From Serratia marcescens subsp. marcescens ATCC 13880 (lineage in GTDB: Bacteria > Pseudomonadota > Gammaproteobacteria > Enterobacterales > Enterobacteriaceae): a DNA stretch of 64,000 nt. Shown one piece after another: positions 7,537-33,370 of this stretch. The notes below the pieces were generated by a model, which was not told the DNA's origin, did no database searches, and worked only from the letters and a program-made list of their open reading frames with translations. The first letter of the stretch is position 1; each line of letters starts with the position of its first letter. The translations under genes were made by a program, and so were the position numbers. The stretch covers positions 310,001-374,000 of the forward strand of contig NZ_CP071238.1 in NCBI RefSeq assembly GCF_017299535.1, in the 5' to 3' direction.

Positions 7537-7569
7537 GAAATGATAATAGATGTTATTATCATTTTCATT
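7537..7569 (+). promoter_or_regulatory. Fur box upstream of the VibH-like gene
   Basis: An interrupted palindrome TGATAATA-N5-TATTATCA at 7541-7561, flanked by further AAT/ATT repeats, closely follows the Fur consensus GATAATGATAATCATTATC. It lies 97 nt before the gene's ATG, so iron-repressed transcription is expected. Confidence 0.75.
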
Positions 7570-7657
7570 TGATGATGTATGGAGACACGCAAAGTCGTTG
7601 AACGGTGGGGTTACGCCCGTTCGGCGTCTTTATTCGGGCTTATCAAAGGTAGGTAAC

Positions 7658-9001
7658 ATGTCGGACACCGCTTTGGCCTCTGGATGGTTGCCGCTGGCGC
7701 CAGCGCAGCTTGATTTCTGGGAAGAACACACCTTGCACCCTGGGCGGACTCTGTCCACCGTCGCACATTGCATCGAACTGTGTGGCGCGGTAGAGGAAGA
7801 GACGCTCTGCCGGGCGATCGTCACCACTCTCGCCGAGACGCAGGCGTTTGCCTTGCGCTTTGGTGAGCGGCATGGCGACTCTCCCCCGTTGTTACGTTAC
7901 GATCCACAGCGTACACCGCCATTGCAACGCATCGATCTGCAAACGCACGGCGATCCCTGGCAGGCGGCGCAAAGCCTGATGCGCGAAGATATCGCGCAGC
8001 GCCGGGCGCTGCACAGCGAGCCGCTAGCCGCAGCCTGGCTGCTCAAACTGGGGCCGGAGCGCTACCTCTGGTACGTGCGTGCGCACCATATTCTGGTTGA
8101 TGGCTTCGGCATGGCCCTGATCGAACACCGCTGCGCCGCGTTATACGCGCACTATCTGGGTGAGGGCAGCGCGGGTATGCCCCTGGGTGCCTTTGACGCC
8201 TTTCAACAGGCTGAACTGGCCTACGCTGATTCTGAGCGATGCGAGCGCGATCGGCGCTTTTGGCAGACCTATCTGCCGCCGTCGCAGGCGCTGCCGACGG
8301 TGCGCAAGGGCGGTGAGGCCTATGGCGTACGGCGTTTGAGCGCCCACTACCGGCTGCCGGCGGCGGTGTCGCACTGTCTGGCGCAGTTGGCGGAGCGCAG
8401 CGGCATCAATTGGCCCGACTTGCTGGTGGCGCTGTCGGCGGCTTGGCTGTTTCAGGTGATGCCGCGCTGTACCCGGCAAGGCGATACGCTGCCGATGTGG
8501 ATGCCGGCGCTGAATCGTCGTGGACAGGCCGCCACCAACGTGCCTTCGCTGGCGGTCAACACTCTGCCGCTGCTGGTGTCACCGCCGCAAGCGGAGACGC
8601 TGGGGAGCTTTCTCACCACGCTGACGCAGCAGCTGCGCGAGCTGCGCAGCCACGGCGGCTACCGCCTGCGCCAACTGGCCGCCGATCGCGGCGTGGATCC
8701 GGACTCGCGCTTCTTTATTTCCCCTTTCATCAACGTGCAGCCCTTCGATACGCCCCGTTTTACCGGCTGCAGCGGTACGCGCAGCGTATTGGCCGGCGGC
8801 TCGGGCGACGGTTTCAACCTGACTTATCGCGGCCGCACCGACGCTCGCGATCTGCAGGTGGATATCGATATCTATCTGGAGCAGTTTCCGACGGAGGATG
8901 CGCTGGACTATGGCGAGGCGCTGCAAGAATTTCTGTTGCGTGCGCTGCAGCGGGAAGCCTGGGAGCAACCGCTGGCGGCCCTGACGGCGTTGCCCGCCTG
9001 A
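7658..9001 (+). CDS. Free-standing condensation protein, VibH-like (siderophore amide synthase)
   Basis: A 447-residue protein that is a single NRPS condensation domain with no adenylation or carrier part, close to the size of Vibrio cholerae VibH. The active motif HHILVDG is at residues 143-149, preceded by the N-terminal core LAPAQLDFW. VibH joins 2,3-dihydroxybenzoate held on VibB to a free polyamine, norspermidine. By analogy this enzyme would acylate a diamine (1,3-diaminopropane in serratiochelin); the amine used here is inference. The ATG at 7658 was chosen over the 36-codon longer frame because of the AAAGGTAGG ribosome site and because the Fur box overlaps the longer frame. It converges on the Cy-A gene. 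Confidence 0.85.
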   Translation: MSDTALASGWLPLAPAQLDFWEEHTLHPGRTLSTVAHCIELCGAVEEETLCRAIVTTLAETQAFALRFGERHGDSPPLLRYDPQRTPPLQRIDLQTHGDPWQAAQSLMREDIAQRRALHSEPLAAAWLLKLGPERYLWYVRAHHILVDGFGMALIEHRCAALYAHYLGEGSAGMPLGAFDAFQQAELAYADSERCERDRRFWQTYLPPSQALPTVRKGGEAYGVRRLSAHYRLPAAVSHCLAQLAERSGINWPDLLVALSAAWLFQVMPRCTRQGDTLPMWMPALNRRGQAATNVPSLAVNTLPLLVSPPQAETLGSFLTTLTQQLRELRSHGGYRLRQLAADRGVDPDSRFFISPFINVQPFDTPRFTGCSGTRSVLAGGSGDGFNLTYRGRTDARDLQVDIDIYLEQFPTEDALDYGEALQEFLLRALQREAWEQPLAALTALPA

Positions 9002-9044: not shown

Positions 9045-12000
9045 TCAGCTGGCCAGCAACGCCGCCACTTCGCGCGCGTTCTTGCACGGCAAGAGCGAAC
9101 TGCTTACCAGACGGGTGCCGAAAGCGTCATTGAGGCGTGCCGCCACCTGTTTGATATGCGGCAGCTTCAGCCCCATGGCGATAAACGCCGTCTCTTCCCC
9201 CCATTCCGGGCGCGGCGTTACGCCAATTTCCTGCCAGTAAATGGCCAGGATCTCGGCGCTGCGCGCCAGCGGCGCGTTCGGCGGCGGGGCCGCGCAGGCG
9301 TTCAACGCCGGCGCGGTTTGCTGGTGGCTCAGGTCGGCGCGGATGCGATGGCGGTCGGTTTTACCGTTGGCGGACAGCGGCAGCGCCTCGGCATGGATAA
9401 AGCGCGTGGGAATATGGGTACAGGGCAGATAGCCGGTGGCGAAGGCGCGGATCTCGGACAGCGGCAGCGGTTTGCCGTCGCGGGTCAGATACAGGGCGCC
9501 GAGCGCCGCCTCGTTGTTCTCTCCGCTGGGATAATCCACCACCACCATATCCAGGATCGCCGGATGGCGGCGCAGCACGTCTTCGATTTCCGGCAGCGAG
9601 ACGCGCACGCCGCGGATCTTCACATAGCCGTTCACTCGGGTGGCGAACATGATGTTGCCGTCCGCACGGTAATAGCCCTGGTCGCCGGTGCGGAAAGCGC
9701 GCAGCGATTGCCCGTCCGGCCCTTCGAGGGTGACGAAATCGTGCTGCTTCAGTTCCCCCTGTTCCAGATAGCCTAACGCCAGGTTGACCCCGGCGGTGTG
9801 AATGCGGCCGACCACGCCCGCCGGGCAGTGGCTGCCGTCGTCATGGCAGATGAAGTAGCGGTTAGCCGGCAGCGGGCGGCCGTAAGGCACGGTGCCGCTC
9901 TCCTGTGGGGCGATCGGGTGCCAGATGCTCCAAATGGTGGTTTCGGTCGGCCCGCCGAGTGAGAACAGCGCGAGATCCGGGCGCAGGGTACGCAGGGTTT
10001 GCACCGTCGCCGGCTTGATGTAGTCGCCGCCCTGCGCCACCAGGCGCAGGGAGCGCAGGCTGTCGGCCGTTTTACAGGTGAGCAGCATCTCCAGAATGGC
10101 CGGCACCGAACACCACAGACTGACCCGATGTTTCTCCACCAATTGGTTCCAACTGATGGCGTCCTTTTCCTGATGCGACGCCGGCAGCACCAGCGTGGCG
10201 CCGGCGCACAGCGAACCGAATAGATCGAACATCGACATGTCATGGTGCGGCGGCGTGACGGAAATGAAGACGTCGTCAGCGGTAACCGCCCAGCGCACCT
10301 GGGTCTGGTGGATAACGTTGGCGGTGGCGCGGTTGTTGAGCACCACGCATTTGGGCTTGCCGGTGGTGCCGGAGGTATACAGATAGTAGCTTGCGGCCAG
10401 GCTGGCGCTGCGTTCCACCAGCGTCTGTTCATCCGGCAGCGCAGGCGTGCGATCCGTCGGCGTCAGCAGGGGCGCCGGCGTCACGCCGATCGGCGTCTCC
10501 AGATCGCCGCCGTGCACCACCAACGTCGGCCGGCAGTTCTCCAGCAGGTAGGCGGTGCGCTCCGGCGGCGAGTTGATGTCGACAGGCACCCAGATCACCC
10601 CCTGCAGGGCGCAGGCGAGGCTGAAGATGACCAGTTCCGGGCTGCGCGGCAGATACAGCGCCACCACGTTGCCCGGCTGCACGCCGCGGCTCTGCAGGTT
10701 GGCGATTGCCGTGGCGATCCGCTGGCCCAGTTCGCGGTAGGTCAGCGTCTGCTCGCCGCAGATCAGCGCATTGCCGCCGTTTTGCGCGCCAAACAGCCGC
10801 TCGGCCAGCTGCGCCAGATAAGGGTAAGGCGCGTAATTCGCTTCGCTGTCGTTGTGGCGGTAATGCGCCAGATCGATGAAGTCCCGCGGCGCGATCGCCA
10901 GGTCGGCCCGTTGGCAACTGTGCAGGATGCGTCGCTGCAACGCGGCCAGCATGGCTTCTACCTGCTCGCCGTGCAGCGCCTGTTCGGCGTAGTCCACGCA
11001 CAGCTGCAGATTTTTTTCGCTGTCCAGCGTCAGGCGAATGTCGATGGCGACCTGCGGCGTTTGGGTCAGGCCGTCGTGGAAGCGCACCGGCGCCTCGGCC
11101 GGCAGCGTTTCCCAACCCAGGCAGTTGGTCAGGATCACCGGCAGCGCCGGGCCGCCCTGGCTTTGGCCGAGCAACTGCCGCGCCAGATCGACGCCGGAAA
11201 ATGCCAGGTGGTCGAGCGCGCCGAGTACGTCGTCCTGCAGGGCTTGCGCGCGCTGAATAAAATCTTCGCCGTGGCGGGAATAGCGCACCGCCACGAAGCT
11301 GGAGGCGTTGCCCAGGGCGCCGTCGGCGGCGGGGAACGCCACCGGCACCCCGACGCACAGCTCGCCATCGGTGGTCCAGTGGGCCAGCGTATCGAGGATC
11401 AGCGCCGACAGCAGGCTGTTGCGCAGCAGCGCATGCGGCGATCCCAGGCGGCCAAGCTGTTTTACCGTATCGCGCGGTAGCGTCAAGGTGGCGCGGCGAT
11501 AGCGTGATGAGGTGAGATTGGCGAGCGGGGCGCGCCACGGCAGTGCCGACGGCGTGGTGACATCCTGCAGTTTTTCACGCCAGTAGGCGGCATCGGCCTG
11601 GCGCTGCGCCGCCGATGCGGCGGGGGGCGGCAGTGCGGCGGCGGTCGGCGCCAGAGGGCGATCGTCGAACAGGCGCGCGATCACGGTGGAGATCCCTTGG
11701 CCGTCGAGGATCAAGGCATCGAAGCTGGTGAAGATCAGCGTATCGTACGGCGATCCCGTCGGATCCTGCTGTTCGGCAAGTTGGATCACGGCGATGCGCC
11801 ACAGTGGCTGGCTCGGATCGTGGCGCTGGTGGGAGTAGCGATCGCGCAGCTGTTCAGTCTGGCGCTGCGCCGCTTCGCCATCAAGGGAGCGCAGATCGTG
11901 GCGATCCAGATGCAGCGTCACCTCTGGGCGTACGTGCTGCGTGGCGCGCTGCACATCGATGCAGGTGCGCAACGCCGGGTAGTGCTGTACCAGCTCGGCC

Positions 12001-12140
12001 AGGCGCGCTTCAAGGCGCGGTACATCCCGCTGCCGGGTGCGGTATTCGCGAAAGTCGTGCATCGCCACGCCGCCGAGCGGCCATCGATCGCTGCGGCCCA
12101 GAAGGTAGGCCTGCTGCAGTGCGGTTAATGGTGTCTCCAT
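9045..12140 (-). CDS. VibF-like NRPS piece: heterocyclization-adenylation with degenerate carrier
   Basis: A 1031-residue synthetase. Residues ~1-430 form a condensation-type domain with the heterocyclization signature DALILD at 141-146 in place of HHxxxDG, and the Cy opening LTALQQAYLLGR. Residues ~440-950 form an adenylation domain with core A3 YTSGTTGKPK, A5 GGPTETT, A7 FRTGDQGYYR and the lysine motif LSANGKTD. The order Cy-A matches the second Cy and the A domain of vibriobactin synthetase VibF, which activates threonine; threonine here is inferred from that. The last ~75 residues look like a carrier domain, but the serine motif is replaced by AMGLKLPH, so it cannot carry phosphopantetheine. 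GGGAAG ribosome site before the ATG. Second gene of a two-gene operon. Confidence 0.85.
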   Translation of the reverse strand: METPLTALQQAYLLGRSDRWPLGGVAMHDFREYRTRQRDVPRLEARLAELVQHYPALRTCIDVQRATQHVRPEVTLHLDRHDLRSLDGEAAQRQTEQLRDRYSHQRHDPSQPLWRIAVIQLAEQQDPTGSPYDTLIFTSFDALILDGQGISTVIARLFDDRPLAPTAAALPPPAASAAQRQADAAYWREKLQDVTTPSALPWRAPLANLTSSRYRRATLTLPRDTVKQLGRLGSPHALLRNSLLSALILDTLAHWTTDGELCVGVPVAFPAADGALGNASSFVAVRYSRHGEDFIQRAQALQDDVLGALDHLAFSGVDLARQLLGQSQGGPALPVILTNCLGWETLPAEAPVRFHDGLTQTPQVAIDIRLTLDSEKNLQLCVDYAEQALHGEQVEAMLAALQRRILHSCQRADLAIAPRDFIDLAHYRHNDSEANYAPYPYLAQLAERLFGAQNGGNALICGEQTLTYRELGQRIATAIANLQSRGVQPGNVVALYLPRSPELVIFSLACALQGVIWVPVDINSPPERTAYLLENCRPTLVVHGGDLETPIGVTPAPLLTPTDRTPALPDEQTLVERSASLAASYYLYTSGTTGKPKCVVLNNRATANVIHQTQVRWAVTADDVFISVTPPHHDMSMFDLFGSLCAGATLVLPASHQEKDAISWNQLVEKHRVSLWCSVPAILEMLLTCKTADSLRSLRLVAQGGDYIKPATVQTLRTLRPDLALFSLGGPTETTIWSIWHPIAPQESGTVPYGRPLPANRYFICHDDGSHCPAGVVGRIHTAGVNLALGYLEQGELKQHDFVTLEGPDGQSLRAFRTGDQGYYRADGNIMFATRVNGYVKIRGVRVSLPEIEDVLRRHPAILDMVVVDYPSGENNEAALGALYLTRDGKPLPLSEIRAFATGYLPCTHIPTRFIHAEALPLSANGKTDRHRIRADLSHQQTAPALNACAAPPPNAPLARSAEILAIYWQEIGVTPRPEWGEETAFIAMGLKLPHIKQVAARLNDAFGTRLVSSSLLPCKNAREVAALLAS

Positions 12141-12204: not shown

Positions 12205-13815
12205 TCAGTGCTGCGGCGCCAGCGCGGCGAGCAGCGTTTTCGCATGCTTTCCTGCCTCGGGCGACCGTTGGCAGATCAACGCCGCCAGCGCAGCCGGGGA
12301 GGGATGCGCCGTCAGATCCTGCGCCGTCAGCGCCGCCGCCAGATACTTGTTGAGCACTGTCAGCAGCGCGTTCACCCCGGCATCCGGCAAGGCCAACCGG
12401 CGGATATCGTCGTGGTCGCGCAAGTCGGCCTCGGGAGCCACCCGCGCCAGCAGCCGGTGCAGCACCTGGCGCACCGGCGCCTGCTGCGCCAGCGCGTCGG
12501 GCGTGCATTGCGCCAGCAGCTGCGACAGCGGGCGATCGAACGCCCCCGCTTGCCGCGCGGCCAGGTGCAGCAGCGCCCGGTAACAGGCCAGCAGGCGCGG
12601 CAGCACCTGCTCGGGGAACGCGTCCAGCCGCACGTCCCAGTTGATCAGAATACCGTCGTCGACATGGGCGACCTGCGCATCCAGCGCCACCTGCGGCCCC
12701 TGAGAGATCACCCAGCCGAGACGGCCGAAGGTGTCGGTGACCCGTTCGGAAAACAGCGTTTTGCCGCGGATGCCGAAACCGGCGGTAAACACCACCGGCG
12801 AAGGTTGCAGGCTGCCGTGCAGGCGCGACAGATCGCGCATCACGCTGACGCCGGGGTAATCCGCATGCTCGATCAGCTCCCCCAGCTGCGTCATCAGGCG
12901 CCGGCAGAAGGCGTTCAGGTTTTCCGTCGGGTTCAGTTCCACGCCGAGCAGCACCAGGTTAGAGAAATCGCCGATGAGGCGATGTGCGTCTTCCCGTTCG
13001 CTCTCGCGGTGGAACAGCGGCACGTTGAGCCGGAAGCGTGTCATGTTCCAACCCTGGCCGACGGCCAGCGCGAACAGCGCCAGAAACAGCGTCGAGAGGG
13101 AGGTGTGATGCCGTTTCGCGACGTTTTCCAGCGCGCGGCTTTCTTCTGCATTCAACTGTATGGCCAAACGATCGCTGCGGCAGCGGTCCGGCGTGCGCAG
13201 CAGGCGCGGCGCCGGCGGCATCTGCGCCAGGCGTTCACGCCACCAACGCTGGCCGCGTTCGCGCCGTTGGCGCAGCGCCGCGTCGGCGTCGCGTCGTTCG
13301 AGGTGGTCGAAGTAGGCCGGCGGCGCGTCATGGGCTGGGGCCGGCGGGCACTGGTGATAAAACGCCGTCAGATCTTCCATCAACAGGCGAAAGCTCATGG
13401 CATCGCCGGCGATCATGTCGAGATCGACATGCAGGCGGCTGCGTCCCGCCGGCAACAGGCTCAGGCTGATATCGCAGGGAACGCCCTGTTCCAGCGGCAG
13501 CAACTGGGTGCTTTTCGCCTGGCGCTTGGCGGCGAGCGCGGCCGCCAGCGTCGCTTCATCGGCATGTCGCCAGTCGTCGAGATGCAAAGTATGCCGGGGG
13601 CCGGGAGGTGCGATCGTCTGCCTGCCATCGTCGGTAATGCGCAGGCGTAACAGCGGATGGCGCAGATACAGCGCCTCGACGGCCTGGCGCAGCCGAGCGA
13701 TGTTCAGCTCGCCGCTGTCGAATTCCGCATACAGGTGGGCGGCCATGCCGCCGAGAGGAGGAGCGGACTGTCGGCCTACCCAATAGGCGGCCTGCATCGT
13801 GGTCAAAGCTTTCAT
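12205..13815 (-). CDS. VibF-like NRPS piece: stand-alone heterocyclization domain
   Basis: A 536-residue protein with one heterocyclization (Cy) domain. It opens with LTTMQAAYWVGR and carries the full Cy motif DMIAGDAMS (D133, D138, S141). This corresponds to the first Cy domain of VibF, here a separate polypeptide. In VibF the tandem Cy domains split the condensation and ring-closure steps that make the methyl-oxazoline from threonine. Residues ~435-536 resemble a carrier protein (final helix pattern DLTAHPSPAALAALI) but the serine position region reads LALPDAGV with no serine. The ATG at 13815 follows GGA; a TTG-started frame adds 16 residues without a ribosome site. A Fur-like site lies just upstream; the gap to the Cy-A gene is 64 nt. 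Confidence 0.83.
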   Translation of the reverse strand: MKALTTMQAAYWVGRQSAPPLGGMAAHLYAEFDSGELNIARLRQAVEALYLRHPLLRLRITDDGRQTIAPPGPRHTLHLDDWRHADEATLAAALAAKRQAKSTQLLPLEQGVPCDISLSLLPAGRSRLHVDLDMIAGDAMSFRLLMEDLTAFYHQCPPAPAHDAPPAYFDHLERRDADAALRQRRERGQRWWRERLAQMPPAPRLLRTPDRCRSDRLAIQLNAEESRALENVAKRHHTSLSTLFLALFALAVGQGWNMTRFRLNVPLFHRESEREDAHRLIGDFSNLVLLGVELNPTENLNAFCRRLMTQLGELIEHADYPGVSVMRDLSRLHGSLQPSPVVFTAGFGIRGKTLFSERVTDTFGRLGWVISQGPQVALDAQVAHVDDGILINWDVRLDAFPEQVLPRLLACYRALLHLAARQAGAFDRPLSQLLAQCTPDALAQQAPVRQVLHRLLARVAPEADLRDHDDIRRLALPDAGVNALLTVLNKYLAAALTAQDLTAHPSPAALAALICQRSPEAGKHAKTLLAALAPQH

Positions 13816-13866
13816 CGGGTATCCATTTTGATTCAGCCAACGAGACTGCAAGAATATATCCAAATG

Positions 13867-14348: not shown

Positions 14349-16442
14349 ATGGGCAAGCATTTTGCGGCTCAACGGCATGAAAGCGTAGGAAACGGGGAAA
14401 AAGCGGGGTTGAAAGCCATTGGGGCGTTTTCCTCCGTATTTTTAGGGGTTTGTTCACTGGCGATCGGTAACGTCAACGCGGCGGAAACCAAGAGCAACGA
14501 AACCTACCAGGACGCGGAAACGCTGCTGGTTACCGGTGAGAAGGTCAAACGTTCCATTTTCGACACCGGCTCCAGCGTCGAAGTGTTCGACAGCAACCGC
14601 ATCTCCTCTATGCCTAATGCGACACAGGTTCCCGATTTGCTGCGCATGACCCCCAACGTGGTGGATGTCGGCATCGGCAACGATCTGCCAACCGTGCGTG
14701 GCGTTGACGGCTCCGGCCCGACCACCGGTGCCGGCGCTTTCCTCAGCGGCACCAGGCCGCGCCTCAATCTGTCGTTGGACGGCCGTTCGCTGACCTATAA
14801 CGAACAAGCCTACGGACCGCAATCGTTGTGGGATCTGGATCGCGTTGAAGTGTTCCGCGGCCCGCAAAGTTACATTCAGGGGCGCAACGCCATCGCCGGC
14901 GCCATCGTCATGGCCAGTAAAGACCCGACCTTCGAATGGGAAAGCGCCTTCAAGGGCGGGGCCGGCAATCAGCACTCCTCTCAACTAGCCGCCATGGCGT
15001 CCGGCCCGCTGGTGGAAGACCAGTTGGCGTTCCGTGTCAGCGTCGATCGCCAGCGTCGCCGCAGCGATGCTGACCTGCCGGCCTATGAACCGGTGGGCGA
15101 TCCGCGTGAAGTGGAGGCCACCACCGCCCGCGCCAAGCTGCTGTTCAACCCGGCCGGTTTGCGCGATCTGACCACCAAGCTGACCTTTAACCACTTTGGC
15201 AGCACCGCACCGCAGAACGAAAGCCTCAACCCGCAGCCGCATCCTGCGAGTGCGCGTCACGACATCCGTCGGCCGGTGTTCAAAAGCAATGTGAACAGCG
15301 GGATCTGGGATCTGGCCTGGGAGGCCTCCGATGGCCTGGCGTTGGAAAACCGCGTTATCTATACCGATTTCAACATTAACCGCGCCACGGCTTATCAGCT
15401 GCCGTACGCCGACATCGGCGGTAAAGAGGTGCACGTAGAACCGGTGGTACGTTTCGGCGGCGCGGACAGCCGCCTGCACGGGCTGGCGGGGCTGCGTTAT
15501 TTCCACGCCAAGCAGGATGAGTTCGTCAATATCTTCGGCGGCGCGACTTTTAAAGATAAAACCGACACTAACTCGGCCTTCGCTGAGCTGACCTATGCGC
15601 TGACGCCGCAGGTGGACGTGACTGCCGCCAGCCGTTTGGAACGCGAACATCGCCAACGCAATGGCGGCAGCAAGGCGGTGCGCATCGACTTCGACGAAAC
15701 CTACACGGTGTTCCTGCCGAAACTGGACGTGGCCTGGAAACCGACGGACACCCAAACCTACGGTGCCAAGATCGCCCGCGGTTATAACGCTGGCGGTGCA
15801 GGCATTACTCTCAGCAGCCCGATCGTCAGTTACACCTACGGTTCCGAGTATGTCTGGAACTATGAGTTGTACACCCGCCATCACCTGAAAGACGCCAACG
15901 TGGTGCTGACCAGCAACGTGTTCTACAACGATTACAAAGACATGCAGCTGCCTTATTACCTGGGTGAAAATTCCAGCGTGATCCGCAACGCCGACAAGGT
16001 GGAAACCTACGGCGCGGAAATCGGCGCCACCTGGCAGCCGCGTTGGGACTTCGAGCTGTTCGGTAACGTTGGCCTGCTGAAAACCAAGATCAAAAAGTTC
16101 TCGGGCAGCGGCGTGGAAGGGCATGAATTGGGACGCGCGCCGGCTTACACCGCCAACATGGGCGCCAAATATCAGTTCCTGAAAGGGTGGGAAGTGAGCA
16201 CTAACGTGGCGTTCTCGGACTCCTATTACTCGGCGTATGACAACGATTCGCGCGGGCGTATAGGTTCTTACTGGTCGGCTAACGCCCAGCTGGCCTACAC
16301 CTTCGCCTATGGGCGCGCCACGCTGTTTGCGCAAAACCTGTTCGACTCCGAGCGTCGCATCATGGTTGGCGGCAACGATATCTACACCGCGACGCAGCAG
16401 CGCCCGCGCATGGTCGGCGCGGCGGTTGAGCTGAATTTCTAA
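14349..16442 (+). CDS. TonB-dependent catechol siderophore receptor
   Basis: An outer-membrane receptor of 697 residues. It has a signal peptide with an extended N-region (hydrophobic part ~23-41, likely cleaved after NVNA) and a likely TonB box ETLLVTG. A plug domain follows with DLLRMTPNV, VRGVDG and RVEVFRGPQS, then a beta-barrel ending in the terminal aromatic pattern AAVELNF. Such receptors take ferric siderophores into the periplasm using TonB-ExbB-ExbD energy. Its place among VibF-like genes, with an upstream double Fur box, suggests it imports the product of that pathway, as ViuA does for vibriobactin; the substrate is inferred. Strong ribosome site AAAGGAGA. Only 79 nt separate it from the next NRPS gene, so one transcript is likely. 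Confidence 0.88.
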   Translation: MGKHFAAQRHESVGNGEKAGLKAIGAFSSVFLGVCSLAIGNVNAAETKSNETYQDAETLLVTGEKVKRSIFDTGSSVEVFDSNRISSMPNATQVPDLLRMTPNVVDVGIGNDLPTVRGVDGSGPTTGAGAFLSGTRPRLNLSLDGRSLTYNEQAYGPQSLWDLDRVEVFRGPQSYIQGRNAIAGAIVMASKDPTFEWESAFKGGAGNQHSSQLAAMASGPLVEDQLAFRVSVDRQRRRSDADLPAYEPVGDPREVEATTARAKLLFNPAGLRDLTTKLTFNHFGSTAPQNESLNPQPHPASARHDIRRPVFKSNVNSGIWDLAWEASDGLALENRVIYTDFNINRATAYQLPYADIGGKEVHVEPVVRFGGADSRLHGLAGLRYFHAKQDEFVNIFGGATFKDKTDTNSAFAELTYALTPQVDVTAASRLEREHRQRNGGSKAVRIDFDETYTVFLPKLDVAWKPTDTQTYGAKIARGYNAGGAGITLSSPIVSYTYGSEYVWNYELYTRHHLKDANVVLTSNVFYNDYKDMQLPYYLGENSSVIRNADKVETYGAEIGATWQPRWDFELFGNVGLLKTKIKKFSGSGVEGHELGRAPAYTANMGAKYQFLKGWEVSTNVAFSDSYYSAYDNDSRGRIGSYWSANAQLAYTFAYGRATLFAQNLFDSERRIMVGGNDIYTATQQRPRMVGAAVELNF

Positions 16443-16521
16443 CGCTATCGCGATGATGGGGGGACGAATGTCCCCCGTTTTATGCGCTATCCCGGCACGG
16501 CCGGGCAGAGGAGATAACGCA

Positions 16522-18603
16522 GTGATCGGTGATTTTGACAGCATTCTGAGCGATGAAGAGGCCCAGCGGCTGGAGAGCGCGTTTCAGGCGCTGGGCGCGC
16601 CGTCGGCGAACGGCGAGCGGCCGGTAAGCGAAGCCGAAGAACGGGCATGGTTTGCCCATCTGCAGCAGGGTGACGCACGCGGGCAGCGGGCGATGGCCTG
16701 GCGCCTGACGGGAGAGGTGGATATCGCCCAACTGACGGCGGCGCTGCAAGCGCTGGTGCGGGAAACGCCGGGCGTGAACGTGCGTTACGTTTTTGATGAC
16801 GAAAACGGTCTGGTTAAACGCGCCGCCGATTCGGCGCCGTTGCCGGTGAGCCTGCGTCAGGTGGCGGATGAACAACACGCCATGGGTTGCCTGCTGCAAG
16901 CGCAGGCGGCGCCATTTGAACTGGAAAGCGAAGCGCCGCTGCGCTGCCTGCTGTTGCTCACGCCTGCCGATGACGTGATTTTGGGCGTGGTATTGCATGA
17001 CATCCTGGCGGAAGCGCTGCCGTGGCGCCATCTGCCGACGATGCTGTCCGCCCGTTATAACGGGGGTGCGATGCCCCTGTCTTTCGCGGCGGCGCCGGTC
17101 GAGCTGCCGGAAATCCCGGCGCCACAGCTGCCCTGGGCGCGCCAGGCGGTCTCGCTGCAGGATTACCGCAGCCCGGCGCAGCGTGCTGAAGCCTTGCCGC
17201 CGGTGGGCGCGCGCGTGGTCACACGCATTGATCGCTCGCTGTTGCCCGCCAACGACACACCGCGGGCCTTGCTGGCGGCGGTGGCGGCGCGGTTTGCCGA
17301 GTTCGTCGCCGCGCAGGCCGGTGGCCAAGCGGTGCAGCTGTGCGTGCCGGCCGCAGAAACGGCGGAGTGCGTCGGTCTGGAGCTGGGCCTGACGGCGGCG
17401 CCGCTGATGCGCCTGACCGTGCAGCATGGCGAGGGCGACATCGGGCAGCGGCTGCTGGCGCAGGCCGTGGCTGAACAGCCGGATCCGCAGCGGGCGCAGC
17501 TGCTGGTGGCCTGGCGTGACGATCTGGCTGCGGACTGGCGCATGGAAGGCGTTCACGCCGAACGCCTGTTGCTGCCGCCGCTGCATACGCCGTTTGAACT
17601 GGCGCTGCTGTTGGGCTTGCCGGAGGCAGAAACGCTGACGCTGGAGCTGGTCACCGACCCGCGCCTGTCTCCGCACGCGGCGCCTTTCCTGCTGGAGCAG
17701 TTCAGCGCGTTCCTGGCCGGGCAGCGAATTACCGTCGCATTGCCGGCGGCTGAATCCGCTTCCCCGGCGATGGCCGCGCCGGCGGCGAACAGCGACGTGG
17801 ATGAAAGCGTTGCGCCGCTGATATTGCAGGAGTTCCGTGAGGCGCTGGTGGCACCGGAAATGACCCTGGATGAAGACTTCTTCGATCGCGGCGGCCATTC
17901 GCTGGTCGCTACCCGGGTGATTGGCCGCTTGCTGAGCCTGCATCAGATCGAAATCAACATTAACGATTTGTTCAGCCATCCGACGGCGCGCGGGCTGGCG
18001 GGCTACGCCAAACGCCTGAACGTCGCGCAGCCGAATGCCGCGCTAGCCACCGCCGACGATCATGAGGGGGCGCAGGCGCCGCTGTCGCTGGCGCAGGAAT
18101 CGCTGTGGAAGGTGTATGAAGCCTTCGGCCATGACGAGATTTTCAACCTGCCGTTCTCTCTGCGCTTCTTCGATGCGGTGGACGAAACGGCGCTGCACCA
18201 GGCGTTTATCGACGTCATGACTCGCCATACCGTGCTGCGTTCACGCTTCGTCGAGCAGCAGGGGGAGGTGGTGCAGGTGGTGGTGCCGGCCGCAGAACTG
18301 CCGGATTATCAGTGGTTCCGCTTCTCTCACGAGACGCCGGCGGGTAATGCCGCCGCCCTGTTGGCCGACGCCGGCCAGCACCGGTTCGATCTGGCCGCCG
18401 AGCTGCCGCTGCGCGCCACGCTACTGCGAGATGCGGACAACGGCCAACAGCTGCTGTCGTTGCTGTTCCACCATGTGGTGCTGGATGAATGGTCGCTCAA
18501 TCTGATGATGGATGAGCTGGGCGTCGCCTATCGCCATCGCGTCGTCGGCCAGGCGCCGCAGTGGAGCGGGCAGCCGCCGCAGTTCCATACCTTCGCCCGG
18601 TAA
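16522..18603 (+). CDS. VibF-like NRPS piece: C(degenerate)-PCP-C, cut short by in-frame TAA
   Basis: A 693-residue protein starting at a GTG behind the ribosome site AGAGGAG; an upstream ATG at 16453 lacks one. Residues ~25-430 form a condensation domain whose motif HHxxxDG is degraded to HDILAEA (159-165), matching the vestigial first C domain reported for VibF. Residues ~435-495 form a carrier domain with an intact GGHSL, serine 460, the only functional carrier among the three VibF-like pieces. Residues ~510-693 start a second condensation domain with HHVVLDE at 650-656. The frame then stops at TAA 18601-18603, although coding continues in the same frame to 19431. This last domain would transfer the oxazoline acyl group to the amine, so loss should block or cripple the final step. 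Confidence 0.82.
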   Translation: MIGDFDSILSDEEAQRLESAFQALGAPSANGERPVSEAEERAWFAHLQQGDARGQRAMAWRLTGEVDIAQLTAALQALVRETPGVNVRYVFDDENGLVKRAADSAPLPVSLRQVADEQHAMGCLLQAQAAPFELESEAPLRCLLLLTPADDVILGVVLHDILAEALPWRHLPTMLSARYNGGAMPLSFAAAPVELPEIPAPQLPWARQAVSLQDYRSPAQRAEALPPVGARVVTRIDRSLLPANDTPRALLAAVAARFAEFVAAQAGGQAVQLCVPAAETAECVGLELGLTAAPLMRLTVQHGEGDIGQRLLAQAVAEQPDPQRAQLLVAWRDDLAADWRMEGVHAERLLLPPLHTPFELALLLGLPEAETLTLELVTDPRLSPHAAPFLLEQFSAFLAGQRITVALPAAESASPAMAAPAANSDVDESVAPLILQEFREALVAPEMTLDEDFFDRGGHSLVATRVIGRLLSLHQIEININDLFSHPTARGLAGYAKRLNVAQPNAALATADDHEGAQAPLSLAQESLWKVYEAFGHDEIFNLPFSLRFFDAVDETALHQAFIDVMTRHTVLRSRFVEQQGEVVQVVVPAAELPDYQWFRFSHETPAGNAAALLADAGQHRFDLAAELPLRATLLRDADNGQQLLSLLFHHVVLDEWSLNLMMDELGVAYRHRVVGQAPQWSGQPPQFHTFAR

Positions 18604-18618
18604 CAGCGGGCCTCGGGA

Positions 18619-19431
18619 GTGCAGCAGCAACATCTGGACTACTGGCTCGATGCGCTGCGCGGCGCGCCGGTCGGCCAGCCGATCTTCCGGCAAGAAGCGT
18701 CCACCCACCCGGCGGTGCCGGCGCCGGCGGACGTCAACGGCGGCTGGCTTGAGTTCGAGGTCGATCCTGCCGTGGCGGAAGGCTTGTATCAGCTTGCCCG
18801 CCGCAACAACGCGTCGCTGTTCAACGTGGTGTATGCCGGGATTACCTCGGCGCTGCGCCTGCTGGGCGGCCCGGCGGATCTGCTGGTGGGCACCTCGACT
18901 TCCGGCCGTAACGACGCCGAGTTCTTCGATACCGTCGGCTATTTCACCACCGTGGTGGTGCACCGCGTGCGCTTTGACGAGGGGCTGACGGTGGCCGGAT
19001 TGGTCAGCCAGGTGAAAAACACCATCAATGGCTCGCTGCCGTACACTGACATTCCGATCGATCTGGTGGAGGAAGGGCTGTTCGGCGTGGACGCCGACCG
19101 CAAGAACCACATGTTCGAAGTGTTTATCCAGATCCACAGCCGCATCAAGCTGAACGGCGAGTTCCGGCTGCAGGACGGCAGCGCGATCGCCTACCGTCAG
19201 GTGGAGCCGGAGAAAGCCGAATCGTTGCTCGGCCTGCAGTTTGAGGTGATGGAAGACGATCTGGCGGGGGCGAAATCCCTGCGGGTGATGATGACCTACC
19301 GCCAGGATCACTACAGCCGGGAGCAGGCCAATCTGATCGCCGACGGCGTTCAGCACGTCTTTACCCAGTTTGCGCAGCACATCGCTGGCGATATCGCTCT
19401 GGCGGCGCTGCCGCCCGGGCCGCAGGCATGA
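18619..19431 (+). CDS. C-terminal half of the interrupted VibF-like condensation domain
   Basis: 270 residues in exactly the same frame as the gene before it, starting at the first possible start (GTG) 15 nt after the TAA. It begins with QQQHLDYWLDAL, the region that follows the ...FARWQR... stretch in intact condensation domains, and goes on with VGTSTSGRND, VGYFTTVV and HMFEVFIQIH, typical of the C-terminal half. It has no active HHxxxDG of its own. The frame is clean to its natural end, so either the break is recent or the two halves are made separately and assemble. A weak GCGGG about 8 nt before the GTG is the only possible ribosome site. It could equally be called the 3' part of a pseudogene. 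Confidence 0.7.
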   Translation: MQQQHLDYWLDALRGAPVGQPIFRQEASTHPAVPAPADVNGGWLEFEVDPAVAEGLYQLARRNNASLFNVVYAGITSALRLLGGPADLLVGTSTSGRNDAEFFDTVGYFTTVVVHRVRFDEGLTVAGLVSQVKNTINGSLPYTDIPIDLVEEGLFGVDADRKNHMFEVFIQIHSRIKLNGEFRLQDGSAIAYRQVEPEKAESLLGLQFEVMEDDLAGAKSLRVMMTYRQDHYSREQANLIADGVQHVFTQFAQHIAGDIALAALPPGPQA

Positions 19432-19478
19432 CGTTGTTTCACTCTAACCGAAAGCATGATTTTCAAGGAGATAAAAGG

Positions 19479-20711
19479 ATGTCTGGAACCCTAGCAACCC
19501 CGCGCGCGTTACTGTCGCTGCTGGTGGCGGCCTCTCTGGTGGTCGCCGGCGCCGCGCAGGCCGACGATGCCGGCATCAAACCGCAGGACATCAAGCGCCA
19601 GGCGTTGTCGTCGACGGTGGTGGAGATGGCCTACAGCACCTCGCAACAGGCGCTGTTCGTCAGCGCGCCGGATTGGAAGGAAGAGGCGCGCTCCCGCGTG
19701 CTGCGGCTGGATCCCAACACCCTGGCGATCAAGGCGGAGATCCCGCTGCAGGTGAAAGGCTTCGGCGTGGCGCTGAACGACGCGGGCAATCGCCTGTACC
19801 TGACGCAGGCCTTCAACGGCGAAGTCGGGGTGGTGGACACCACCACCAACCACGCGCTGGGCAGCATCAAGCTGCTGGACAAGGCAGTGCTGGAGCAGGC
19901 TTACAAGCAGGCGGGCATCAGCGGCAAGCGTCTGGATTTCCTGTTGGCGGAGCTGAAGAAGTTTAAAATCACCGAGGACTACCTGTATCGCCTCCGCGAG
20001 ATCAAGTATGACGCGCAAAGCGGCCGTCTGTTCCTGCCGGGCCTGGGTTTCGGCGTCGACAGCGTGCTGTACGTGGTCGATACCAAGGCCGGCAAGCTGG
20101 AGAAAGTGATCCCGGGCTTCGGTTACAACGCGGTGGGCATCACGCTGGATGAGAAGGGCCGTCGGGTATTCGTTTCCAACATGCAGGGGCAGGTGATCAC
20201 CCTGAACGCCGACACGTTGGCGATCACCGCCACGCACGAAGTGCAGGCCGATCAACTGCTGAACCTGGTGTATGACCCGGCGGGCAATCGCCTGCTGGGC
20301 GTCGATCAGGGCATCGATCGCGACGACTATCGCAACCATCATCTGGGGCACGACTACGTGAAGCGCAGCAGCGGCCACCGGGTATTTGCGCTGGATGCGG
20401 ACAGCGGCAAGGTGCTGGCCAGCGAGCTGACGGATGAGGTGCCGATCGGCCTGTTGCTCGACGAGCGCAGCCAGCGGCTGTATGTCGCCAACCGCAAAGG
20501 GGTACGCGTGGATCACGGCGCCGGGACGCTGACGGTGTTTGACGCCAAAACGCTCAAGCGTCTGCAGACCGTGGATTTGCCGCCGCACCCTAACAGCCTG
20601 GCGCTGGATCCGAAAGGTGACGCGCTGTTCGTGACGGTGAAAAACGACGGCGCTTCCACCAAGGCCGGCAAGCCGGAAAGCGTGGTGCGTATTCAACTTC
20701 ATTCCAACTAG
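19479..20711 (+). CDS. Periplasmic YncE-like beta-propeller protein
   Basis: A 410-residue exported protein. The ATG at 19479 follows AAGGAG by 8 nt and starts a signal peptide likely cut after GAAQA. The rest is built of repeats such as ...LRLDPNTLAIKAEIPL..., ...VVDTTTNHALGSIKL... and ...HPNSLALDPKGDALFV..., the YVTN/seven-bladed propeller type of E. coli YncE. It is a longer, diverged paralogue of the yncE gene at 34296. E. coli yncE is Fur-repressed and adjacent to a TonB receptor gene (yncD), so an iron-uptake link is plausible, but its molecular task is unknown. It lies 47 nt after the NRPS gene and likely shares its transcript. Confidence 0.82.
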   Translation: MSGTLATPRALLSLLVAASLVVAGAAQADDAGIKPQDIKRQALSSTVVEMAYSTSQQALFVSAPDWKEEARSRVLRLDPNTLAIKAEIPLQVKGFGVALNDAGNRLYLTQAFNGEVGVVDTTTNHALGSIKLLDKAVLEQAYKQAGISGKRLDFLLAELKKFKITEDYLYRLREIKYDAQSGRLFLPGLGFGVDSVLYVVDTKAGKLEKVIPGFGYNAVGITLDEKGRRVFVSNMQGQVITLNADTLAITATHEVQADQLLNLVYDPAGNRLLGVDQGIDRDDYRNHHLGHDYVKRSSGHRVFALDADSGKVLASELTDEVPIGLLLDERSQRLYVANRKGVRVDHGAGTLTVFDAKTLKRLQTVDLPPHPNSLALDPKGDALFVTVKNDGASTKAGKPESVVRIQLHSN

Positions 20712-24927: not shown

Positions 24928-28872
<3,945 letters not shown>

Positions 28873-31741: not shown

Positions 31742-33370
31742 ATGAGCATTGCCTTTACCCCCTGGCCGGCGGAGTTCGCCAGCCGCTATCGCGAGCGCGG
31801 CTACTGGATAGACAAGCCGCTGACCGAGATCCTCGACCGCCAGGCCGACAACGACACCCCGGCGATTATCGATGCCCAGGGCAGCCTGACCTACCGCGAG
31901 CTGCAGCAGCGCGCCGATCGTCTGGCGGCCGCTCTGCTGCGCCGCGGCGTAAAATCCGGCGATACCGCGCTGGTGCAACTGGGCAACGTGGCGGAGTTCT
32001 ATATCGTGTTCTTCGCGCTGCTGAAAATTGGCGTGGCGCCGGTCAATGCGCTGTTCAGCCATCAGCGCAGTGAACTGAACGCCTATGCCGAGCAGATCAA
32101 ACCGGCGCTGCTGATCGCCGATCGCCAGCACGGGCTGTTTGCCGACGATCAATTCCTGAACGCCTTCCGCGCTGCGCATCCTTCGCTGCGCGTCGTGGCG
32201 CTGCGCAGCCAGCCTGAGGGCGAGCTGGCGCTGGCCGCCTGGCTGGACGAAGCGAGCGACGGTTTTGTCGCGCAGCCTTCCGCGGCCGACCAGGTGGCGT
32301 TCTTCCAGCTTTCCGGCGGCAGCACCGGTACGCCGAAGCTGATCCCGCGCACCCACAATGACTACTACTACAGCATTCGCCGCAGCGTGGAGATCTGCCG
32401 TTTCGACGCGCAGACCCGCTATCTGTGCGCGCTGCCGGTGGCGCACAACTACCCGATGAGTTCGCCGGGCGTGCTGGGCGTGTTTTATGGCGCCGGGCGG
32501 GTGGTGTTCGCCGCCGATCCGGACGCCGGACAGTGCTTTCGCCTGATCGAACAGCATCAAATCAACGTGACGGCGCTGGTGCCGCCGGCGGTCACGCTGT
32601 GGCTGCAGGCGATCGAAGAGTGGGGCGGCAATGCCCAGCTCGCCAGCCTGAAACTGCTGCAGGTGGGCGGCGCCAAGCTGGGCGAAACGCTGGCGGCGCG
32701 CATTCAGAACGAAATCGGCTGCCAACTGCAGCAGGTGTTCGGCATGGCGGAAGGGCTGGTGAACTACACCCGGCTGGACGACGACGAGCGCCACATTCTG
32801 ACGACGCAAGGGCGGCCGATGTCGCCGGACGACGAGGTGTGGGTGGCGGATGACGACGGCAATCCGTTGCCGGCGGGCGAGGTTGGGCGGTTGATGACGC
32901 GCGGGCCTTACACCTTCCGCGGTTACTACCAGAGCCCGGCGCACAACGCTGACGCCTTCGACGCCAACGGTTTCTATTGCTCCGGCGATCTGATCAGCAT
33001 CAGCGAAGACGGTTACATCACCGTGCAGGGGCGGCAGAAAGACCAGATCAACCGCGGCGGGGAGAAGATCGCCGCCGAGGAGATCGAGAACCTGTTGCTG
33101 CGTCATCCGGACGTGATCAACGCCGCGCTGGTGTCGATGCCGGATGCGCTGATGGGGGAGAAGAGCTGCGCCTATATCATCGCCAACGCGCCGCTGAAGC
33201 CGGTGGTGCTGCGCCGCCACCTGCGTGAGCAGGGCGTGGCGGACTTCAAGCTGCCGGATCGCTTTATTCAGGTGGACAGCCTGCCGCTGACCCCGGTCGG
33301 CAAAGTGGACAAAAAACGGCTGCGCCAGCAACTCGACGCGCAACTACAGACTCAGGCTCAGGGAGATTAA
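31742..33370 (+). CDS. entE: 2,3-dihydroxybenzoate-AMP ligase EntE
   Basis: A 542-residue stand-alone adenylating enzyme. It activates 2,3-dihydroxybenzoate and loads it on the carrier domain of EntB. P-loop-like motif [19 protein letters not shown], the aryl-acid pocket region [13 protein letters not shown], and the hinge and lysine motifs [15 protein letters not shown] and TPVGKVDKK are present. It would serve both EntF and the VibH/VibF-like enzymes. Confidence 0.96.

What the first reader, a model, noticed from the sequence alone, without database searches (positions are those of the whole stretch)
18595..18630. In-frame TAA cuts the last condensation domain of the VibF-like synthetase
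At 18601-18603 the frame reads FAR-stop-QRASG...LDYW. Intact condensation domains have Trp at this place (the common AxWQR pattern), and coding continues without other defects for 275 codons. TGG to TAA needs two changes, so this may not be a single sequencing error. The result is either a broken siderophore gene or a natural split with restart at GTG 18619. The domain is the one expected to join the oxazoline acyl group to the amine.
Basis: partly seen in the sequence, partly recalled or inferred. Interest (0 to 1): 0.8.

Follow-up and report, generated by a model that had tools for sequence, protein, structure and literature searches.

The report
Nonsense mutation in Serratia siderophore gene
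A stop codon cuts one gene of an otherwise complete-looking iron-scavenger (serratiochelin-type) pathway in this Serratia genome, most likely an ordinary strain-level loss of one of its two catechol siderophore routes.

Summary
In detail: TAA at 18601-18603 lies in frame in a gene matching schF3 of the Serratia serratiochelin cluster, and the frame continues to 19431. The gene occurs once in the genome. The frame is open across the site in 21 of 21 loci from the species collection and in 25 of 25 other matching same-genus genomes; the sets overlap. "Two changes" holds as a count, but the codon lies in a cluster of otherwise silent differences, so an older silent change plus one nonsense change suffices. 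Restart at GTG 18619 has an unremarkable ribosome site; a better one precedes GTG 18772, where an unresolved 75-member protein cluster also begins. The cut removes the C-terminal part of the last condensation domain. Published schF3 disruption in S. plymuthica V4 stops serratiochelin and photobactin but not enterobactin; entF and entE look intact here. The VibF counterpart is already split into F1, F2 and F3 in Serratia; this break is not that split. Best reading: a recent inactivating mutation, ordinary. Function as two chains is not excluded and has no positive evidence.

The parts
16522..18603 (+). schF3-like gene, 5' piece (693 aa): N-terminal condensation-like region, carrier protein, first part of the last condensation domain with motif HHVVLDEWS; ends at the stop
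   Evidence: ORF; Pfam PP-binding, and Condensation to profile position 179 of 456; start by relatives' start and ribosome-site score
18601..18603 (+). in-frame TAA; not seen in the relatives whose DNA was read
   Evidence: sequence; frame open in relatives
18619..19431 (+). remaining 3' frame, 270 aa from GTG: C-terminal part of the last condensation domain
   Evidence: ORF; Pfam Condensation 192-440 of 456; 0 nonsynonymous and 6 synonymous codon changes specific to the window
7550..9001 (+). schH/VibH-like stand-alone condensation protein, looks intact
   Evidence: Pfam Condensation; frame compared with relatives; the name schH is inferred from the cluster
9045..12140 (-). schF2-like: condensation/cyclization-type part plus adenylation domain, looks intact
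   Evidence: Pfam; same open frame in 8 of 8 relatives compared; the name is inferred from the cluster
12205..13863 (-). schF1-like: condensation/cyclization-type domain, looks intact; start codon uncertain
   Evidence: Pfam; same open frame in 7 of 8 relatives compared, the eighth (L059) not resolved; the name is inferred from the cluster
14349..16442 (+). TonB-dependent receptor just upstream of the broken gene
   Evidence: Pfam
24928..28872 (+). entF-like enterobactin synthetase (C-A-T-TE), full length
   Evidence: Pfam; end-to-end best match to NCBIfam EntF, 1879 bits, below that model's cutoff of 2400
31742..33370 (+). entE, 2,3-dihydroxybenzoate-AMP ligase, full length
   Evidence: NCBIfam equivalog above its cutoff

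Best explanation
The stop is a genuine, recent nonsense mutation in the schF3-like gene of a Serratia serratiochelin cluster. It removes the C-terminal part of the final condensation domain, the domain expected to join the dihydroxyphenyl-oxazoline acyl group to the amine made by the SchH-like enzyme. The strain should fail to make serratiochelin/photobactin-type siderophores but keep enterobactin. Shown here: the stop, the open frame downstream, open frames in relatives, a single copy in the genome, neighbouring genes without stops. Inferred: loss of activity, the age of the stop and the siderophore phenotype.
For: The frame is open across the site in 21 of 21 loci of the species collection (L019 is cut by its contig end 33 codons upstream of its match, which is still beyond the site) and in 25 of 25 other same-genus genomes with a match (4 of the 30 genomes searched lack the stretch). 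Only one copy in the own genome. Of 44 ORFs kept from one relative's corresponding region, 20 match the window at 70% or more, and this is the only one of the 20 with a stop or a broken match. The piece after the stop shows 0 nonsynonymous and 6 synonymous changes specific to the window, against 5 and 12 for the piece before, as expected if the break is young. Disruption of schF3 in S. plymuthica V4 abolished all catecholate siderophores except enterobactin (PMC7962358, passages).
Against: No second isolate known to be of the same species and no raw reads could be examined, so fixation in nature is not shown. Close relatives differ from this codon at two or more bases, so one very recent single event explains it only if another difference is older and silent. 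The clean downstream piece would also fit continued function of both halves. A 219-aa cluster (P0080, 75 members, source not given) begins at the residue of GTG 18772, so separate C-terminal pieces may exist in other strains; whether these are broken genes, contig-end fragments or real genes was not resolved.
Confidence: 0.8

Rival explanations
1. Sequencing, assembly or laboratory-passage artefact: the natural strain has an intact gene.
For: Only one genome read here shows the stop, and the downstream frame is pristine.
Against: The genome is in 2 contigs at completeness 100; no other stop or broken match in the 20 comparable ORFs; the codon differs from relatives at more than one base in 45 of 45 located loci, which a single miscall would not give unless one difference is old. 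None of this speaks against a laboratory mutation.
Confidence: 0.12
2. Natural split: the C-terminal part is made separately, by restart at GTG 18619 or a later GTG, and reassembles with the first part into a working condensation domain.
For: The break falls between the two parts of the Pfam match (179 and 192 of 456) and at about residue 162-192 of the 436-residue VibH chain 1l5a by weak sequence matches, near where I recall the two lobes meeting. GTG 18619 begins 15 bases past the stop. No decay downstream. GTG 18772 has a ribosome-site score (-6.6) equal to that of the entF start, and the 75-member cluster P0080 begins there.
Against: The score at GTG 18619 (-3.4) is equalled or beaten by 34% of 2926 ATG/GTG/TTG triplets in the window, while the gene's own start is in the top 1.4%. 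That GTG also stands in 6 of 6 close relatives with an unbroken gene. Restart at GTG 18772 would lose 51 more residues of the domain. In the DNA read, 0 of 21 and 0 of 25 relatives have the break.
Confidence: 0.05
3. Readthrough or suppression of the TAA gives some full-length enzyme.
For: No tRNA survey of the whole genome was done, so a suppressor is not excluded; the window holds one tRNA, for Phe.
Against: Relatives have no stop here, so nothing points to programmed recoding; I ran no search for recoding signals.
Confidence: 0.03

Closest known systems
SchF3 of the serratiochelin pathway (Serratia plymuthica V4; homologue reported in S. marcescens SM6)
   Same: Similar cluster content (F1, F2, F3 and H-type genes, and enterobactin-type genes in the genome); Serratia relatives align over both pieces
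   Different: This copy is cut by a stop; the relatives' copies read here are not
VibF of vibriobactin synthesis (Vibrio cholerae)
   Same: Published homologue of SchF1F2F3 (51% protein identity per PMC5635690, passages)
   Different: VibF is the product of one gene; in Serratia the counterpart is three genes already, independent of the stop reported here
VibH (PDB 1l5a), stand-alone condensation enzyme
   Same: The first part of the cut domain matches residues 3-162 (E 5.6e-5)
   Different: Intact single domain that acts on a different step (recalled)

Membership tests
SchF3 / VibF-type terminal synthetase | carrier protein domain followed by a terminal condensation domain | tested here: met
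   Pfam PP-binding then Condensation in the first piece, continued in the second piece
SchF3 / VibF-type terminal synthetase | active-site motif HHxxxD of the condensation domain | tested here: met
   HHVVLDEWS in the first piece; the two His and the Asp are invariant in the 14 aligned family proteins
SchF3 / VibF-type terminal synthetase | one uninterrupted reading frame through the condensation domain | tested here: not met
   TAA at 18601-18603; frame open in relatives
Serratiochelin gene cluster | F1, F2, F3 and H-type genes plus enterobactin-type genes supplying dihydroxybenzoate | tested here: met
   by domain content, gene names inferred; not every enterobactin-type gene was searched. 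schF0-F3 homologues are reported in S. marcescens SM6 (PMC6498229, passages)
Serratiochelin gene cluster | production of serratiochelin | not testable with these tools
   needs chemistry
Naturally split condensation domain | the same break conserved in related strains | tested here: not met
   0 of 21 and 0 of 25 relatives share it; these are one genome per species, so strains of the same species were not tested
Naturally split condensation domain | translation signal for the second piece | tested here: inconclusive
   unremarkable ribosome site at GTG 18619 but close to the stop, so reinitiation is possible; better site at GTG 18772

The most novel reading that the evidence does not exclude
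The stop falls near the junction of the two lobes of the condensation domain, and the second lobe, made by reinitiation just past the stop, joins the first in trans to give a working two-chain condensation domain: a fourth piece of a VibF-type enzyme that is already in three genes.
Probability: 0.04. Interest if true: 0.5.

Novelty: new member of a known kind. Interest (0 to 1): 0.15.

Why it matters
It is a small, clear example of siderophore repertoire loss: one of two overlapping catechol siderophore routes is cut at its last step while the other biosynthetic genes examined stay full length. It also warns that a cluster can be scored as present although its product is probably not made. If the two-chain reading were true, it would show that a condensation domain can work when split at its lobe junction.

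Tried and rejected
Rejected: Trp as the residue expected at the site. Rejected: that this break is the known F1/F2/F3 split; the F1-like and F2-like genes are separate and on the opposite strand (F1-F3 named as separate genes in PMC6498229 and PMC7962358, passages). Rejected: that the SchH-like gene is frameshifted; the one-base difference from relatives lies at about 7591-7594, before the condensation domain.

Considered: clusters P0082 and P0083, which begin at the residue coded by GTG 18619, as other strains with the same stop; both carry frameshifts further on, and a frameshift upstream would give the same start, so I do not count them as evidence either way. P0080 (219 aa, 75 members) begins at the residue of GTG 18772; not resolved. 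No N-terminal piece of about 693-716 aa ending at the stop is recognisable by length and coverage among the 79 proteins listed, but only 7992 candidates were scored and clusters are at 90% identity, so members could be hidden; P0045 and P0049 were not inspected.

A literature search for premature stops in Serratia siderophore synthetases (10 of 22 papers listed, titles and starts of abstracts seen) showed none on this gene; the passages of one of them (PMC4231636) do not mention one. The serratiochelin search listed 20 of 45 papers. This is no proof that it is unpublished.

Full report
What is there. The stop codon TAA at 18601-18603 is in the sequence and ends the ORF 16453-18603; the same frame continues to 19431. 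Relatives such as P0001 and P0002 begin at the residue coded by GTG 16522, which has the strongest ribosome-site score of the six starts ranked (top 1.4% of 2926 start triplets in the window), so the first piece is probably 693 aa. Pfam finds a carrier protein domain and the first part of a Condensation domain (profile to 179 of 456) in the first piece, and the rest (192-440) in the second. The active-site motif HHVVLDEWS is in the first piece.

Which gene. The window's genome has 5.16 Mb in 2 contigs; the closest named matches to the second piece are Serratia bockelmannii, S. marcescens, S. ureilytica and S. nevei at 99%. The surroundings are a SchH-like stand-alone condensation protein, an F2-like and an F1-like synthetase on the opposite strand, a TonB-dependent receptor, the broken F3-like gene, and further on entF and entE. 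This matches the serratiochelin genes; schF0, F1, F2 and F3 homologues are reported in S. marcescens SM6 (PMC6498229, passages). SchF1F2F3 are described as homologous to VibF (PMC5635690, passages). The founding paper on serratiochelin biosynthesis was not held. So the VibF-type enzyme is three genes in Serratia in any case; the stop is a further break inside the third.

Is the stop shared? In 21 of 21 loci from the one-genome-per-species collection the frame is open across the site (L019 reaches only 33 codons upstream of its match before its contig ends, which still covers the site). In the same genus, 30 genomes including the own were searched; 26 hold the stretch, and all 25 others are open across the site. 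Seven weak second hits (four fetched as L048-L051) were left out of these counts. The own genome has one copy. Strains of the same species could not be examined. In the protein collection a 219-aa cluster of 75 members, P0080, begins at the residue of GTG 18772; its origin is not given, and it could reflect broken genes in other strains, contig ends, or gene-caller choices.

The Trp argument. Of 54 loci examined, 45 could be placed by the simple anchor used and 9 could not; in 45 of 45 the codon is a sense codon other than Trp, differing from the window's at two bases in 40 and three in 5 (several rows are the same genome fetched twice). Among 14 aligned family proteins none has Trp at that column. 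Two changes against relatives is therefore correct as a count. But within 601 bases there are ten positions where the window differs from all six close relatives; five lie within 31 bases around the stop (probability about 0.005 for such clustering in random draws, the test chosen after seeing it), and the eight outside the codon are all third codon positions. An older silent difference followed by one nonsense change is enough.

Age and decay. Codon changes specific to the window, against six close relatives, nonsynonymous and synonymous: second piece 0 and 6 in 266 codons; first piece 5 and 12 in 692; F1 4 and 18; F2 5 and 25; H 7 and 9 (its first codons are out of frame against relatives); receptor 0 and 1; the next gene 1 and 17. 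The piece beyond the stop shows no sign of decay, which fits a young break; it would also fit continued function, and the numbers are too small to separate the two. Of 44 ORFs kept from one relative's region, 20 match the window at 70% or more, and only this one has an internal stop or a broken match, so the assembly is not generally faulty here.

Could it still work? GTG 18619 begins 15 bases after the stop, so reinitiation is possible, but its ribosome-site score is ordinary (34% of start triplets in the window are as good or better) and the same GTG stands in 6 of 6 close relatives with an unbroken gene. GTG 18772 scores better (top 6.5%, equal to the entF start), as do several GTG codons further in, but a start there would lose 51 or more residues of the domain. 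The break lies near where the two lobes of the domain should meet: the first part of the cut domain matches VibH residues 3-162, and an intact relative matches VibH as far as residue 192 (weak matches). That the lobes meet about there is recalled. The review PMC11546977 (passages) describes two subdomains forming a V, with latch and floor loops reaching over from the C-terminal one; from this I infer that the missing part is needed. A structure prediction to locate the site did not finish.

Consequence. In S. plymuthica V4, disruption of schF3 abolished all catecholate siderophores except enterobactin (PMC7962358, passages). Here entF and entE are full length (entF scores below the NCBIfam cutoff but matches end to end). 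The expected phenotype is enterobactin yes, serratiochelin/photobactin no. This is inferred, not shown. PMC12193787 (one passage) states that S. marcescens mutants lacking the serratiochelin cluster were outcompeted in a mouse bacteremia model, so the gene was treated here as virulence-associated and its pieces were searched apart.

Verdict. It is an ordinary inactivating mutation in a known gene. What would change this is proof that the two pieces are made and work together.

Noticed in passing
protein P0033, aligned to window 16522-18603: A protein named from Serratia marcescens is 789 aa long and lacks an internal stretch of the N-terminal condensation-like region while keeping the carrier and last condensation domains; shorter N-terminal regions also occur in P0055 and P0057. 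The first region may be dispensable.
   Followed up: no
protein P0056: A protein named from Serratia plymuthica keeps the carrier domain but its ends look frameshifted; either another broken schF3 or sequencing error.
   Followed up: no
protein P0080; window 18772: A 219-aa cluster of 75 members begins at the residue of GTG 18772, which has a fair ribosome-site score (-6.6). Origin not given; could mark other strains with a broken or separately started C-terminal piece.
   Followed up: partly
proteins P0081, P0083, P0086: Three protein clusters share the same altered spelling (VSR) at one place that overlaps a CCAGG in the gene; this looks like a systematic long-read error at a methylated motif (recalled, not tested).
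   Followed up: partly
window 14349-16442: The receptor gene is 99.6% identical to the closest relative but 84-89% to the seven others compared, unlike its neighbours: a hint of recent exchange of this gene.
   Followed up: no
window 16458-16476: A terminator-like hairpin lies between the receptor gene and GTG 16522 (the number of such sites in the stretch is near chance).
   Followed up: no
window 19428-20711: A YncE-like beta-propeller gene (weak NCBIfam match, below cutoff) has an ORF that overlaps the end of the broken gene (start uncertain); a stop upstream could lower its translation.
   Followed up: no
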